Assembly (NCBI RefSeq): GCF_000027145.1
Contig: NC_013891.1
Location: forward strand, 620,001 to 684,000
Source: Listeria seeligeri serovar 1/2b str. SLCC3954
GTDB taxonomy: Bacteria > Bacillota > Bacilli > Lactobacillales > Listeriaceae
Length of the DNA stretch: 64,000 bases
Reading direction: 5' to 3'
Below are positions 43,823 through 54,645 of this stretch, piece by piece. Both the position numbers and the translations under genes were made by a program. The first letter of the stretch is position 1; each line of letters starts with the position of its first letter. Below the pieces are notes generated by a model. That model made no database searches, was not told where the DNA came from, and saw only the letters and a program-made list of their open reading frames with translations.

Positions 43823-46800
43823 TTATTGTCTACGGATTTTTTTGCGCTTCCTTGTGCTAGATAAAACACAAAAAGCTAGTAACAGAAGGTTGAAACCAAT
43901 GAAAATTAAATGATTATTTGTATCACCCGTTCTAGGGAGAATAATATTGGTTTGTTGGGCACTTTTTTTATTATCAGTGTTATCGCTATTATTGATATTA
44001 CTGTTTCCGCTACCATTGCCATTGTTGCTATTACTGCTATTACTGCTATTACTGCTGTTCCCATTGTTATCTGGAGGAACTGGCGGAGTAGGCTTACTCG
44101 GAGTAATATGAACAATTACTTTAACAGGATTTGCGGCCAATCCATCTTTGTTAATAGCTTGAAGTGTAACAGTATAATCCCCTGGAGTATTAAAATCGAC
44201 CACAGTTAAAAAGTCACTGGTAATTGACGAGCCATCATTCGTTGTCGCGTGAATATCTGCATAAAATTTTTCTTGGCTGATCACACTATTTATTGGATAA
44301 GTAATTTCTTTATCTGCTGTAATAATAGGTTTTGCAGTGGCTTTTTTTACATGAACAATAACTGTCACTGGATCTGCTGTTATCCCATCTGCATTTATAG
44401 AATTTAATGTCACTGTGTAATCTCCTGCAGTACTAAAATCGACCACAGTTGTAAAATCGCTGGTAATTGGCGAGCCATCGCTGGTTTTTGCATGAATCGC
44501 TGACAGAAACTCTGCTTCGGTTACTTCCGAAAATAAAGGATACGTAATGCTTGTATCAGCAGTTATTATAGGAGCAGGAGTTTGTTCCACATGGACAGTG
44601 ACAGAAACAGGAACGGCAGGAACTCCATCTTCATTAATTGCTTGAAGAGTCACTGTATAATCTCCCGGAGTTGACAAGTCTACTACCGTGAAAAAGTCGC
44701 TTGTAACCGGCGAACCGTCATTAGTTGTGGCATGGATATCGCTTAAAAATTTGCTTGAACTAACTGTGCTATTTTTCATATAACTAATTTCACTGTCTGC
44801 TGTAATTATTGGAGCGGGCGCTTTTTCGACATGAACAATGACTGTCACTGGATCTGCAGTAACCCCATCCTCATTGACTGAATTCAATGTCACCGTGTAA
44901 TTTCCCGCCGTACTAAAATCAACAGCCGTCAAAAAGTCACTTGTAACCGGTGAGCCGTCATTAGTTGTAGCATGAATATCACTTAAAAATTCGCTTGAAC
45001 TAACTGTGCTATTTTTCATATAACTAATTTCACTGTCTGCTGTAATTATTGGAGCGGGCGCTTTTTCGACATGAACAATGACTGTCACTGGATCTGCAGT
45101 AACCCCATCCTCATTGACTGAATTTAATGTTACCGTGTAATTTCCCGCCGTACTAAAATCAACAGCCGTCAAAAAGTCACTTGTAACCGGTGAGCCATCA
45201 TTCGTAGTTGCGTGAACATCTATCAGAAAGGCTGCCTCAGTTATCGTAGAGAATTTCGGATATGTGATACTTTCATCCGCAGTTATTACTGGTGGTAACG
45301 AAATTTTAAATGGTTGCGTTACTTTCCCTGAAAAAGTACCAGAAACAGCTGGATAATTAACTGGTTCACTAAAGTTATACGATACGCTTGTTAAGTCTTT
45401 AATATTATTGTATTCCCAAATCACATTTCCGTTTTCATATACACCACTATTTGAGATAGCAGTCGGTGGAGAAATCACACCATCATTACTAATTTTGTTT
45501 TCCACTGACAAACGATCCGAAACAATTTTATTTGGTAAAGAGATGGTTTGGTTAGTTCCAGTCAAGCTTTGAAGTACAGGCGCTTCCGTTTCTAAACTAG
45601 TTGGTAAAACGCCAATGCTATTATTACTTACATCTAAGCTATTCAGTACAGGGAGATCTGATAATTGATCAAGCTCTGTTAATTTATTGTTATAGAGAGT
45701 TAATGTTTTTAGATTATCCATGTTCTCTACCAGCACATTAGTAAGTTGATTGTTGCTTAAATTAACATTAGAAATTTGAGGAAGCCCCGTAATTTTTGCT
45801 TTACTGAGATAGTCCGAGTAATTACTGAAATTAACAGAACCAGCATAAGGCGCATTAGTTAAAGCAGGCAAATTAGAAAGTGTTAACTCTTCTAGTTGAG
45901 TGGTTTGACCACCAGAAACATCTATAGATAGGAGTTTTAATTTTGGTTGATCTTCGAGACTTATTTTGGTCATAGTTGGATTGTCATTTAAATGTAGACT
46001 AGCTAAGTTAGGGAACTCGGCAGCGTTTTCAGCGTCTAAAATAAAGCTATTCCATTGATTGTCTATTACATCTAAGTCATTCAAAAGTGGAAGGTTTTGT
46101 AATTTCATTTGAGCCATGTCAGTTAACTTGTTGTCAGATAAATTTAATTTAGTTAATTTAGCTAGGTCTTCAATCGTTACATCATTAATTTGGGTGTCAT
46201 TTAAAGTAACACTAGAAATTTGAGGAAGCCCTGTTAGTTTAACTTTACTAAGATAGTCCGAGTAATTACTGAAATTAACAGAACCAGCATAAGGCGCATT
46301 AGTTAAAGCAGGCAAATTAGAAAGTGTTAACTCTTCTAGTTGAGTGGTTTGACCACCAGAAACATCTATAGATAGGAGTTTTAATTTTGGTTGATCTTCG
46401 AGACTTATTTTGGTCATAGTTGGATTGTCATTTAAATGTAGACTAGCTAAGTTAGGGAACTCGACAGCGTTTTCAGCGTCTAAAATAAAGCTATTCCATT
46501 GATTGTCTATTACATCTAAGTCATTCAAAAGTGGAAGGTTTTGTAATTTCATTTGAGCCATGTCAGTTAACTTGTTGTCAGATAAATTTAATTTAGTTAA
46601 TTTAGCTAGGTCTTCAATCGTTACATCATTAATTTGGGTGTCATTTAAAGTAACACTAGAAATTTGAGGAAGCCCTGTTAGTTTAACTTTACTAAGATAG
46701 TCCGAGTAATTACTGAAATTAACAAAACCAGCATAAGGTGCACTAGTTAAAGCTGGTAAATTAGAAAGAGTTAACTCTGCTAGTTGAGCGGTTTGACCAG

Positions 46801-47908
46801 TATTAACAGATATAGAGACAGTTTTTAATTTTGGCTGGTCTTCTAGACTTATATTTGTCATAGTTGGATTGCCATTTAAATGTAGACTAGCTAAGTTAGG
46901 GAACTCGGTTGCGTTTTCTGCGTCTAAAATAAAGCTATTCCATTGATTGTCTGCTACATCTAAGTCATTCAGTAGTGGAAGATCTTGTAATTTCATTTGA
47001 GCCATATCTGTTAACTTGTTGTCAGATAAATTTAATTTAGTTAATTTAGCTAGGTCTTCAATCGTCACATCATTAATTTGGGTGTCATTTAAAGTAACAC
47101 TAGAAATTTGAGGAAGCCCCGTTAGTTTAACTTTACTAAGATAGTCCGAGTAATTACTGAAATTAACAGAACCAGCATAAGGTGCACTAGTTAAAGCAGG
47201 CAAGTTAGAAAGTGTCAACTCTGCTAGTTGAGCGGCTTGGTCATTGTCAACCGATATGGAGATTGATGTTAATTTTGCTTGATCTTCAATGCTTAATTTT
47301 TTTATCGTTGGATTATTTAATACAGAAAGAGCAGTTAGATTAGGAATATTTTGTGCACTTGTGATGGATATTTCCTCAAGTAAATTAGCGGATACGTCAA
47401 GTGTAGTTAAGGCAGTGAGATTAGTAATTGGCGCAATACTTGTTAGGTTGTTTTTACTTAAATTAATAGACTTAAGCTTAGTCAATTGTTGGATTCCAGT
47501 TACATCCGTAATATTTTTAGAAGGAGCATTTAAACTAGTTAGCGAATCAAGTTGTGCTTGAGTGACTGTTTGAGAGGTGTCATTACTGCCGGTTATTTCT
47601 AAGGCAATAACTTCTGCGAAAGCTTCATCTGGAAATATATCCAGGTAGGTATCGTCTGCCTCAACTGCCACTTCCTTAGCTTTAGTACTACCGCTATTAG
47701 AATCAGAGCGCTCTACATTTAGTCTGTCAGTTTCCGTCGTTTCTTTACTTATAGGTTGTGAGGCAGACACATCAGATGTTTCTTCTGAACTATGATTGAC
47801 AGCATTTTTTTTCATGGCATTGGCTGTAGCCTGCACATTTGCTGGAATAGGAATAATCGCAGTGAAAATGAGACAAGCTATCACGACAGACGAATAGAAT
47901 TTTTTCAA
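43823..47908 (-). CDS. Large LRR and Ig-like repeat LPXTG surface protein (internalin-like)
   Basis: This 1361-residue wall-anchored protein has a signal peptide (1-28), a Ser/Thr-rich linker, an internalin-type cap (YLDIFPDEAFAEVIALEI), then LRRs. The LRR region contains three nearly identical 148-residue blocks plus part of a fourth. After an Ig-like inter-repeat region come five Ig-like repeats of about 80 residues, a Ser/Asn/Gly linker and a sorting signal (LPRTGD, membrane helix, KRKKIRRQ). The start is TTG with AGGAG 9 nt upstream. Sortase A would anchor it. Such proteins usually mediate adhesion; the ligand is unknown. Repeat number probably varies between strains. Confidence 0.92.
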   Translation of the reverse strand: MKKFYSSVVIACLIFTAIIPIPANVQATANAMKKNAVNHSSEETSDVSASQPISKETTETDRLNVERSDSNSGSTKAKEVAVEADDTYLDIFPDEAFAEVIALEITGSNDTSQTVTQAQLDSLTSLNAPSKNITDVTGIQQLTKLKSINLSKNNLTSIAPITNLTALTTLDVSANLLEEISITSAQNIPNLTALSVLNNPTIKKLSIEDQAKLTSISISVDNDQAAQLAELTLSNLPALTSAPYAGSVNFSNYSDYLSKVKLTGLPQISSVTLNDTQINDVTIEDLAKLTKLNLSDNKLTDMAQMKLQDLPLLNDLDVADNQWNSFILDAENATEFPNLASLHLNGNPTMTNISLEDQPKLKTVSISVNTGQTAQLAELTLSNLPALTSAPYAGFVNFSNYSDYLSKVKLTGLPQISSVTLNDTQINDVTIEDLAKLTKLNLSDNKLTDMAQMKLQNLPLLNDLDVIDNQWNSFILDAENAVEFPNLASLHLNDNPTMTKISLEDQPKLKLLSIDVSGGQTTQLEELTLSNLPALTNAPYAGSVNFSNYSDYLSKVKLTGLPQISSVTLNDTQINDVTIEDLAKLTKLNLSDNKLTDMAQMKLQNLPLLNDLDVIDNQWNSFILDAENAAEFPNLASLHLNDNPTMTKISLEDQPKLKLLSIDVSGGQTTQLEELTLSNLPALTNAPYAGSVNFSNYSDYLSKAKITGLPQISNVNLSNNQLTNVLVENMDNLKTLTLYNNKLTELDQLSDLPVLNSLDVSNNSIGVLPTSLETEAPVLQSLTGTNQTISLPNKIVSDRLSVENKISNDGVISPPTAISNSGVYENGNVIWEYNNIKDLTSVSYNFSEPVNYPAVSGTFSGKVTQPFKISLPPVITADESITYPKFSTITEAAFLIDVHATTNDGSPVTSDFLTAVDFSTAGNYTVTLNSVNEDGVTADPVTVIVHVEKAPAPIITADSEISYMKNSTVSSSEFLSDIHATTNDGSPVTSDFLTAVDFSTAGNYTVTLNSVNEDGVTADPVTVIVHVEKAPAPIITADSEISYMKNSTVSSSKFLSDIHATTNDGSPVTSDFFTVVDLSTPGDYTVTLQAINEDGVPAVPVSVTVHVEQTPAPIITADTSITYPLFSEVTEAEFLSAIHAKTSDGSPITSDFTTVVDFSTAGDYTVTLNSINADGITADPVTVIVHVKKATAKPIITADKEITYPINSVISQEKFYADIHATTNDGSSITSDFLTVVDFNTPGDYTVTLQAINKDGLAANPVKVIVHITPSKPTPPVPPDNNGNSSNSSNSSNSNNGNGSGNSNINNSDNTDNKKSAQQTNIILPRTGDTNNHLIFIGFNLLLLAFCVLSSTRKRKKIRRQ
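44280..45280. repeat. Tandem repeats of about 240 bp encoding Ig-like domains
   Basis: Five related units of about 240 bp encode 80-residue Ig-like repeats. Two neighbouring units are almost identical at the DNA level: the block starting TAACTGTGCT occurs at 44761 and again at 45001, exactly 240 bp apart. Confidence 0.85.
45811..47290. repeat. Near-identical 444-bp tandem repeats in the LRR region
   Basis: The string AGTCCGAGTA occurs at 45811, 46255, 46699 and 47143, spaced exactly 444 bp (148 codons). The first two blocks differ at very few positions; the third is more diverged, and the fourth is partial and merges into the unique N-terminal part. Confidence 0.92.
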
Positions 47909-48275: not shown

Positions 48276-48923
48276 TTATTTTCGTTTCCGAACAACCGCA
48301 ATAAATTCATCTAAAGTTTCCCGAGCTTTTATTTGCTCATTACATACATCGCTATCATAACAAATATAATTTCCATTTGTCGTATAGATTCCATCGCCCG
48401 AAGATTTTGTTTTTGCCATGAAAAGCGAGACTTTCGAGTGGGAATGACAAATAGAGCAGACGCCTTTTTGGATATCAGCAGAAATAGTTCCTTCTACACC
48501 AACTAAGTTTCCGTCGTCATAAGTAATGATATATTTCCGTTGTTGAGCAATATCATTCCAACCATAAAACGTGTAATCGCGCAAATTGAGTTTTGACCAA
48601 GCAGGGATTTTTAATTTCTTCGTTTTTGCAAATACCTTTTTAAGTTTCGCGTCACTAGGTGATACAAAAGGAATAACAAATGCTTTCAATTCTTCGAGAA
48701 ATGGCTCAGCTTCTTTCGTAGTAGTAATCGCATGCATTTGGATAAATAAATCCTGATGTGCTTCTAATTCAGCTTGCGAAAAAATTTGATTGATTTTCTC
48801 CTCCGTTAATGACTTCAAAGCCTTAAGCGTCGAAGTATCATTTGCGGATCGGTATGCGCGGGAAATATTGTTTAATTGGTTTTTAATAAAATTATATTGG
48901 TAAGGTTCTATAAACTCTTTCAT
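48276..48923 (-). CDS. FusB/FBP-type elongation factor G-binding protein
   Basis: This 215-residue protein is of the FusB/FBP family, which binds elongation factor G and can rescue it from fusidic acid (family knowledge). There is an N-terminal helical domain (1-80) and a C-terminal domain with a four-cysteine zinc site: C156 and C159 (GVCSICH) and C188 and C194 (YICYDSDVC). Older annotations of such genes as fibronectin-binding are misleading. The start ATG has AAAGGAG upstream, and the gene is preceded by a 150-nt leader that encodes a small peptide, as described separately. It is read divergently from the pyruvate oxidase gene. Confidence 0.88.
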   Translation of the reverse strand: MKEFIEPYQYNFIKNQLNNISRAYRSANDTSTLKALKSLTEEKINQIFSQAELEAHQDLFIQMHAITTTKEAEPFLEELKAFVIPFVSPSDAKLKKVFAKTKKLKIPAWSKLNLRDYTFYGWNDIAQQRKYIITYDDGNLVGVEGTISADIQKGVCSICHSHSKVSLFMAKTKSSGDGIYTTNGNYICYDSDVCNEQIKARETLDEFIAVVRKRK

Positions 48924-48931
48924 TAGTAAAT

Positions 48932-49000
48932 CTCCTTTAATAGTTTAATTTTGGTTAAACTAGCTTCGGATTGAAGAGTTTATGTTTTTCACTCTTACTT
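48932..49000 (-). promoter_or_regulatory. Leader hairpins before the FusB-like gene
   Basis: On the - strand, three pairings are visible: CTCTGTACTTTCTA with TAGAAAGTAAGAG (overlapping the end of the leader peptide), AAGAGT with ACTCTT (sharing bases with the first, so exclusive) inside GGATTG/CAATCC, and TAGTTTAA with TTAAACTA directly before the ribosome site. This is the layout of a translation attenuator. Confidence 0.65.
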
Positions 49001-49001
49001 T

Positions 49002-49058
49002 CTAGGCAATCCAAAAGCCATTGTTAGAAAGTACAGAGCAGTGCAATTTTAAATGCAT
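49002..49058 (-). CDS. 18-residue leader peptide upstream of the FusB-like gene
   Basis: A short open frame encodes MHLKLHCSVLSNNGFWIA. It is preceded by an almost perfect ribosome site (AAGGTGGTGATC, 49076-49065) with 6 nt to the ATG, and lies at the very 5' end of a transcript from a strong promoter. It ends 79 nt before the FusB-like start. Its last codons overlap a strong hairpin. The arrangement matches leader peptides that sense ribosome-targeting drugs by stalling (erm, fusB and similar). No protein function of its own is expected. Confidence 0.75.
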   Translation of the reverse strand: MHLKLHCSVLSNNGFWIA

Positions 49059-49082
49059 CTGTTTGATCACCACCTTGCCTTC

Positions 49083-49111
49083 ATTATAAGCACTTCCGAA
49101 TTCTTCGTCAA
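49083..49111 (-). promoter_or_regulatory. Strong sigma-A promoter of leader peptide and FusB-like gene
   Basis: On the - strand, TTGACG (49111-49106), 17 nt and TATAAT (49088-49083). Transcription would begin only a few bases before the leader peptide's ribosome site. Confidence 0.88.
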
Positions 49112-49193
49112 TGCTAGGTCATGAATATTCTTCACAAAATAGGGTAAACGAAAACTATTACACAAAAAAAGTCCTATGGGAGGAGAAATAGCA

Positions 49194-54325: not shown

Positions 54326-54365
54326 GAATTTGTTTCCTTGAAAACGAATAAGGAGGATAGTATAA

Positions 54366-54550
54366 CTGAATAGAAGCGCCAGAACTGGTTGGATCGAAAT
54401 TACTTCCAAGGTGAAATTCCCAAGAAGTAAGCAATCAGTTGACGAGGAGGAGATTAATCGAAGTTTCGGCGGGAGTCTCCCGGCTGTGCATGCAGTCGTT
54501 AAGTCTTACTTACAAATCACTTGGGCGACCAGGTGGACAGAGTAGTAAAG
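54366..54550 (+). ncRNA. glmS self-cleaving ribozyme (riboswitch)
   Basis: The sequence shows the conserved glmS ribozyme elements: the cleavage-site region GAAGCGCCAGAACTGG, with predicted cleavage between A54375 and G54376, then GGTGAAATTCCCAAG, GTTGACGAGGAGG and GGCGGGAGTCTCCCGGCTG, ending near GGGCGACCAGGTGGAC. Glucosamine-6-phosphate acts as a cofactor for cleavage of the glmS mRNA, giving feedback control. It lies about 95 nt before the glmS start. Confidence 0.96.
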
Positions 54551-54645
54551 AAACATGCGTTACACCCTCCAAGGAAACCCAAAAAATGAAGAGGGCTTGA
54601 AATTGGATAAGTCTGCCCTCAAGTTGATTATTGGAGGAATTTATT

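What the first reader, a model, noticed from the sequence alone, without database searches (positions are those of the whole stretch)
48932..49111. Leader-peptide attenuator controlling a FusB/FBP-type EF-G protection gene
Seen: strong promoter (TTGACG-17-TATAAT), an 18-codon frame at the very start of the transcript with a near-perfect ribosome site (AAGGTGGTGATC), then mutually exclusive hairpins, one overlapping the peptide's last codons and one just before the target's ribosome site. Known: fusB and erm-type genes in Gram-positives use stalling leader peptides, and Listeria has attenuators before other resistance genes. Inferred: drug-stalled ribosomes on the peptide open the structure and allow expression of the EF-G-binding protein. 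I do not know of a description of this element in Listeria.
Basis: partly seen in the sequence, partly recalled or inferred. Interest (0 to 1): 0.8.

Follow-up and report, generated by a model that had tools for sequence, protein, structure and literature searches.

The report
Stall-sensing leader before Listeria FusB-type gene
A short peptide gene and a switchable RNA fold sit in front of a Listeria gene for a protein related to ones that free jammed ribosomes; the layout suggests that jammed ribosomes themselves switch the gene on, and similar layouts precede related genes in many other Gram-positive bacteria.

Summary
On the minus strand a near-consensus promoter, a very strong ribosome site and an 18-codon frame (49058-49002) precede a FusB-family gene (48923-48276). 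The leader is found in 15 of 25 Listeria genomes, one copy each, beside this gene. Among 205 genes with free upstream DNA it is the only leader frame with an anti-SD duplex at or below -12 kcal/mol; the next is -11.9.

One detail is wrong: the two hairpins named coexist. The switch is segment ACTCTTCAATCC, which pairs either with the target's ribosome site and start region (off) or with the end of the leader (on). In folding models, opening the target site costs 5.8-9.3 kcal/mol in 15 Listeria sequences and 1.2-2.7 at best with a ribosome near codons 6-9. No terminator-like site lies in the leader, so translational attenuation, as published for staphylococcal fusB, is likeliest.

Leader frames also precede 97 of 111 FusB/C/D-like genes on a tree, with peptides that differ by clade. 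A 2025 review calls regulation of FusB homologues unknown. The inducer is inferred; covariation within genera is absent; the peptide motif across genera is weak; some clades show no predicted switch.

The parts
49106..49111 (-). -35 hexamer TTGACG
   Evidence: kept in 15 of 15 orthologues
49083..49088 (-). -10 hexamer TATAAT, 17 nt spacer
   Evidence: kept in 15 of 15
49065..49076 (-). leader ribosome-binding site AAGGTGGTGATC
   Evidence: duplex -15.7 kcal/mol, first of 205 genes
49002..49058 (-). leader frame, 18 codons, MHLKLHCSVLSNNGFWIA
   Evidence: frame kept in 15 of 15
49029..49043 (-). codons 6-10 (HCSVL), core of the modelled stall window
   Evidence: opening cost of the target site 2.1-2.5 kcal/mol with the P site here, 6.0 with no ribosome
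49025..49038 (-). segment 1, CTCTGTACTTTCTA, inside the leader frame
   Evidence: pairs with segment 2 in the minimum-energy fold
49007..49012 (-). segment 2a, GGATTG, alternative partner of segment 3
   Evidence: 6 pairs with segment 3, standard wherever both letters are present
48991..49004 (-). segment 2b, TAGAAAGTAAGAGT: pairs with segment 1, or its last six bases with segment 3
48968..48983 (-). segment 3, ATAAACTCTTCAATCC, the element with two exclusive partners
   Evidence: core invariant in 15 of 15 except one C missing in the window's sequence
48941..48962 (-). small hairpin TAGTTTAA..TTAAACTA between segment 3 and the target SD
48931..48938 (-). target ribosome-binding site AAAGGAGA
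   Evidence: its GGA pairs with segment 3 in the off fold
48910..48924 (-). segment 4, AATGAAAGAGTTTAT, start codon and first codons of the target
   Evidence: pairs with segment 3 in the off fold
48276..48923 (-). target gene, 215 aa, FusB-family EF-G-binding protein homologue
   Evidence: PF07299 and PF16571 above cut-off; solved FusB 6.7e-49, FusC 1.2e-35

Best explanation
It is a ribosome-sensing translational attenuator. Without a stall, ribosomes pass through the 18-codon frame; segment 1 pairs with segment 2, and segment 3 pairs with the target's ribosome site and start region, so little EF-G-binding protein is made. When ribosomes are held on the middle of the frame (modelled window codons 6-11 in the window's sequence, mainly 6-9 over Listeria), segment 1 is covered, segment 2 is free to pair with segment 3, and the target site opens. 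Shown by computation: conservation, the alternative pairings, and the dependence on stall position. Inferred: transcription start, translation of the frame, the stall itself, and the inducer, most likely fusidic acid or another agent or stress that holds EF-G on the ribosome (about 0.6, given an attenuator).
For: Leader DNA in 15 of 25 Listeria genomes, once each and adjoining the gene; promoter, SD and frame in 15 of 15; strongest leader SD of 205 genes; fold z -4.2; paired columns vary at 2 of 66, unpaired at 20 of 43; opening cost drops only with the P site at codons 5-11; 0 of 60 shuffles reach the drop for L001 and 0 of 60 for L014; no terminator-like site in the leader. Leader frames with strong SD precede 97 of 111 genes of the FusB/C/D-like branch; over 28 unlike leaders the modelled drop has median 3.5 against 0.8 in shuffles, p 4e-8. 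Staphylococcal fusB itself behaves the same way in the model (0 of 60 shuffles; flip shown), and its translational attenuation is published (passages of PMC12008383 and PMC12493156).
Against: No expression, probing or ribosome-position data. No pair in Listeria has changes on both sides, nor in the pairs counted in the Levilactobacillus group. In the window's own sequence the lowest single fold with a ribosome at codon 8 still holds the target site; of five leaders folded this way it is the one that does not flip. 17 of 28 unlike leaders do not exceed all of their own 11 shuffles, and L029 (E. faecalis), L035, L044 and L049 show practically no drop in the codons scanned. The paired/unpaired contrast is partly circular, since one fold came from the consensus.
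Confidence: 0.85

Rival explanations
1. Same switch, but tuned to inhibitors of the peptidyl-transfer centre or exit tunnel, or to several translation inhibitors or stresses, rather than to EF-G trapping (a sub-case of the attenuator, differing in the inducer).
For: Listeria hflXr is controlled by a leader with an RLR motif and responds to lincomycin and erythromycin, and rli59 responds to several inhibitors (passages of PMC6310831 and PMC8079631). A weak peptide pattern at codons 3-9 exists across genera.
Against: The target acts on EF-G by homology, and published fusB is induced by fusidic acid. The leader shows no RLR motif. Peptides diverge strongly across genera and the shared pattern is weak, unlike what a peptide-dependent stall would ask for (inference).
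Confidence: 0.3
2. Transcription attenuation: the leader ends transcription unless ribosomes stall, as for rli53 and rli80 in Listeria.
For: This is the kind of leader control described in Listeria (passages of PMC8079631 and PMC6310831).
Against: No terminator-like site in the leader on the minus strand; the off fold covers the target SD and start region instead.
Confidence: 0.05
3. The 18-codon frame encodes a peptide with a function of its own, and the RNA fold is incidental or serves only stability.
For: The frame is conserved in 15 of 15.
Against: Codons 2, 3, 9, 14, 16 and 18 change amino acid, with silent changes only at 13 and within 18; across genera the peptides diverge while a leader frame stays at a similar place.
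Confidence: 0.04

Closest known systems
fusB leader of staphylococcal plasmids (pUB101 type)
   Same: Leader frame with strong SD before a FusB-type gene; modelled stall frees the target site; translational attenuation by fusidic acid is published (passages)
   Different: Other peptide and RNA letters; plasmid-borne there, chromosomal here; induction not tested here
Listeria rli53-lmo0919 and rli80-hflXr attenuators
   Same: Leader frame in Listeria before a gene for resistance to translation inhibitors
   Different: Those act on transcription termination (passages of PMC8079631 and PMC6310831); no terminator-like site is found here
ermC-type translational attenuators
   Same: Four-segment logic in which a stalled ribosome frees the target ribosome site (ermC named as translational in a passage of PMC6310831; details recalled)
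   Different: Target is an EF-G-binding protein homologue, not a methyltransferase; not homologous as far as tested

Membership tests
FusB-type translational attenuator | Short leader frame with strong SD upstream of a FusB-type gene | tested here: met
FusB-type translational attenuator | Target SD and start sequestered in one of two alternative folds, released by a ribosome on the leader | tested here: met
   by folding model only; weaker for the window's own sequence
FusB-type translational attenuator | Induction by fusidic acid through stalled ribosomes | not testable with these tools
   needs reporter or toeprint
[quoted passage not shown]
   PF07299 91.7 bits and PF16571 45.1 bits, both above cut-off; four cysteine columns invariant with FusB and enterococcal proteins
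FusB, FusC, FusD or FusF proper | NCBIfam cut-off for the named determinant | tested here: not met
   171.8 of 375 bits for FusB, lower shares for FusF, FusD and FusC; it is a homologue
Transcription attenuators of Listeria (rli53, rli80) | Intrinsic terminator in the leader | tested here: not met
   none found by a simple consensus scan
Rfam RNA families | Match to any of 4227 models | tested here: not met
   none at E up to 1 in 48900-49175

The most novel reading that the evidence does not exclude
Chromosomal FusB-type proteins of Listeria, Enterococcus, lactobacilli and relatives are not housekeeping factors that give fusidic acid tolerance by chance, but the output of an old, family-wide stress circuit: a fast-evolving leader peptide senses ribosomes halted with EF-G, needs little peptide specificity, and releases an EF-G-dislodging protein. 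The plasmid fusB leader of staphylococci would be one recruited member of this circuit.
Probability: 0.4. Interest if true: 0.75.

Novelty: new member of a known kind. Interest (0 to 1): 0.6.

Why it matters
[quoted passage not shown] A leader frame in front of 97 of 111 genes of the FusB/C/D-like branch, with a modelled stall-sensing switch in many of them, argues for inducible, stress-linked use and makes the question directly testable with reporters. It may also mean that tolerance measured in uninduced cultures is an underestimate (inference).

Tried and rejected
Rejected: a Cys-Ser/His pair at or near the end as a common signature (seen in the first four leaders; not held). Rejected: one strong universal stall motif; the pattern shrinks when similar peptides are left out of training (7 of 28 below 0.05) and does not carry to the second branch (0 of 11 below 0.05). 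Rejected: transcription attenuation. Looked for and not found: changes on both sides of a pair in Listeria; in the Levilactobacillus and E. avium alignments the automatic consensus has one such pair each, both outside the switch helices I counted; an Rfam match; papers with lmo0721 (that name for the L. monocytogenes orthologue is recalled) or on leaders of FusB homologues outside staphylococci (listings of an open-access library only). One search aligned loci not turned to one strand and one search used wrong coordinates; searches replaced them.

Rows dropped: L022-L027 (fragments of divergent Listeria genes) from the tree, and 10 identical proteins of the remaining 197 loci, leaving 187; relatives beyond the best 80 of 129; of the matches printed that were not already loci, 60 were fetched, and that list was itself cut. 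The 28 representatives come from 98 leaders of 112 loci, chosen with looser cut-offs than. One search used those 98 plus 11 of the second branch. The genome control stops at the neighbouring gene, whereas the family scan takes 300 nt whatever lies there, so the two rates are not strictly alike.

Full report
What is there. The window lies in a Listeria genome of 2,797,636 bases (genus from named neighbours, species recalled). Between a divergent gene with three thiamine-pyrophosphate-enzyme domains (49176 +) and a 215-aa FusB-family gene (48923-48276 -), the minus strand carries TTGACG-17-TATAAT, a Shine-Dalgarno AAGGTGGTGATC at 49076-49065 and an 18-codon frame at 49058-49002. The target protein matches EF-G-binding_N and FBP_C, lies well below the curated FusB/C/D/F cut-offs, and matches solved FusB (6.7e-49) and FusC (1.2e-35) chains.

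More than chance. In the window and 20 further stretches of 20 kb of the same genome, 205 genes have at least 100 nt of free upstream DNA; this leader frame has an anti-SD duplex of -15.7 kcal/mol, no other is at or below -12, and the next is -11.9. At the cut-offs used later for the family (-9.3 or stronger, 60-200 nt upstream, at least 10 residues), I count 3 of the other 204 genes in the printed rows. The leader folds at z = -4.2 (0 of 200 shuffles). The promoter is the best of six candidates, but the number of candidates is not above chance.

Conservation in Listeria. 24 of 25 genomes have a relative of the gene: 15 close (82-100%), 9 divergent (best piece 29-37%), and 1 has none. The leader DNA is found in exactly those 15, once each and adjoining the gene. 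Promoter, SD and frame are kept in 15 of 15; the peptide is MxxKLHCSxLSNNxFxI(A/V). None of the 9 divergent genes has a comparable leader; their best SD is -6.6. Leader columns that pair in either fold vary at 2 of 66, unpaired ones at 20 of 43 (Fisher p 3.5e-8); this is partly circular because one fold came from the consensus. No pair shows changes on both sides, so covariation neither supports nor refutes the stems. Segments with two partners are expected to be frozen (inference).

The switch. Segment 3 (ATAAACTCTTCAATCC, 48983-48968) pairs there with GGA of the target SD and with the start region AATGAAAGAGTTTAT. It can instead pair with GGATTG and AAGAGT at and after the leader's end; 12 pairs, 131 of 131 cells standard over 11 distinct sequences. 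With a 30-nt ribosome footprint slid along the frame of the window's sequence, opening the target SD and start costs 6.0 kcal/mol without a ribosome, 5.3-6.1 with one at codons 1-4 or from 12 to the stop, 4.2 at codon 5, and 2.1-3.0 at codons 6-11. Over the 15 Listeria sequences the free cost is 5.8-9.3 and the minimum 1.2-2.7, mainly at codons 6-9. Shuffled interiors do not reach the drop: 0 of 60 for L001, 0 of 60 for L014, 0 of 60 for staphylococcal fusB, 1 of 60 for L030. Caveat: with a ribosome at codon 8 the lowest single fold of the window's sequence still holds the target site, while L014, L060, L030 and L028, folded the same way, form the alternative helix.

Beyond Listeria. A scan of named genomes gave 80 loci, the best of 129; of 398 genomes of the class 162 had a match. 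On a FastTree tree of 187 distinct proteins, 97 of 111 members of the FusB/C/D-like branch (support 99) have a leader frame at the cut-offs. Named genera with leaders include Enterococcus, Levilactobacillus, Lactiplantibacillus, Vagococcus, Mammaliicoccus, Lysinibacillus and Listeria, and a Staphylococcus plasmid. The 14 without are L034, L052, L055, L057, L075, L117, L123, L125, L127, L130-L133 and L194; L117 misses the cut-off narrowly, and L034 has the frame without its stop. A second branch of unnamed large-genome Bacilli has 11 of 16, 10 of 10 in its inner fork, with another peptide type, farther upstream. Six further rows pass the cut-offs elsewhere, probably by chance in part.

Same logic, other letters. 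22 Levilactobacillus-type leaders show three-way pairing: 1:2 and 3:4 (CCTTTCAGA with TCTGAAAGG, which holds the SD) 98.9% standard, and the alternative 2:3 (GACACTTTTC with GAGAAGTGTC) 99.5%. In the E. avium group the 1:2 helix is in the consensus; TTTCCTC with GAGGAAA (3:4) and the alternative are seen in the fold of L030, since the alignment is shifted there. Over 28 unlike leaders the modelled drop has median 3.5 against 0.8 in shuffles (Mann-Whitney p 4e-8); 11 of 28 exceed all 11 of their own shuffles, 2.3 expected, and 17 do not. L029 (E. faecalis), L035, L044 and L049 show practically no drop.

The peptide. A six-residue pattern, mostly at codons 3-9, stands out against shuffled peptides (94.6 against 66.1, sd 3.8, 40 shuffles). 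With similar peptides left out of training only 7 of 28 reach 0.05 (Fisher p 1e-4), and none of 11 in the second branch does. I read this as position and layout mattering more than peptide, which would suit an inhibitor acting through EF-G (inference).

Known and new. Translational attenuation of staphylococcal fusB by fusidic acid is published (O'Neill and Chopra 2006, not read; cited in passages of PMC3352095, PMC12008383 and PMC12493156). Listeria has transcription attenuators at lmo0919 and hflXr (passages of PMC8079631 and PMC6310831). The review PMC12493156 says that regulation of FusB homologues is unknown. In the listings of searches I saw no paper on this element or on leaders of FusB homologues outside staphylococci; the library is open access only, and the 2016 term-seq paper is not held, so an entry in its tables cannot be excluded. 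I file the element as a new member of a known kind, with the wide family behind it as the newer part.

Noticed in passing
window 43823-47908 (-): A 1361-aa frame with an LPRTG-type C terminus (cell-wall sorting motif, recalled) and two sets of internal repeats: 4 copies of 300 nt spaced by 444, and 4 copies of 240 nt.
   Followed up: partly
window 54364-54560 (+): glmS ribozyme/riboswitch, 137.4 bits, the only Rfam match in the window at gathering score.
   Followed up: no
L172, L173, L175, L181, L187, L191, L195, L197, L198, L200, L203, about 173-191 nt before the gene: A second type of leader frame before FusB relatives in unnamed large-genome Bacilli, with peptides such as MLMLVCPLARSSSCKA; opening costs in the model are high and the switch there is unclear.
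   Followed up: partly
L034, upstream of the gene (Enterococcus gilvus plasmid record): The leader frame (SSCIVRTK type) has no stop before the target start; the record annotates a hypothetical protein overlapping the gene start.
   Followed up: partly
L052, L055, L057: Three Enterococcus loci lack the leader frame that their close relatives (L049, L053, L058, L105) have; the DNA upstream looks replaced.
   Followed up: no
L022-L027 (three divergent Listeria genomes): The FusB relative is matched in two pieces in each of three genomes, with stops inside some pieces.
   Followed up: no
L005, beyond the 3' end of the gene: A run of N in the fetched stretch of this genome.
   Followed up: no
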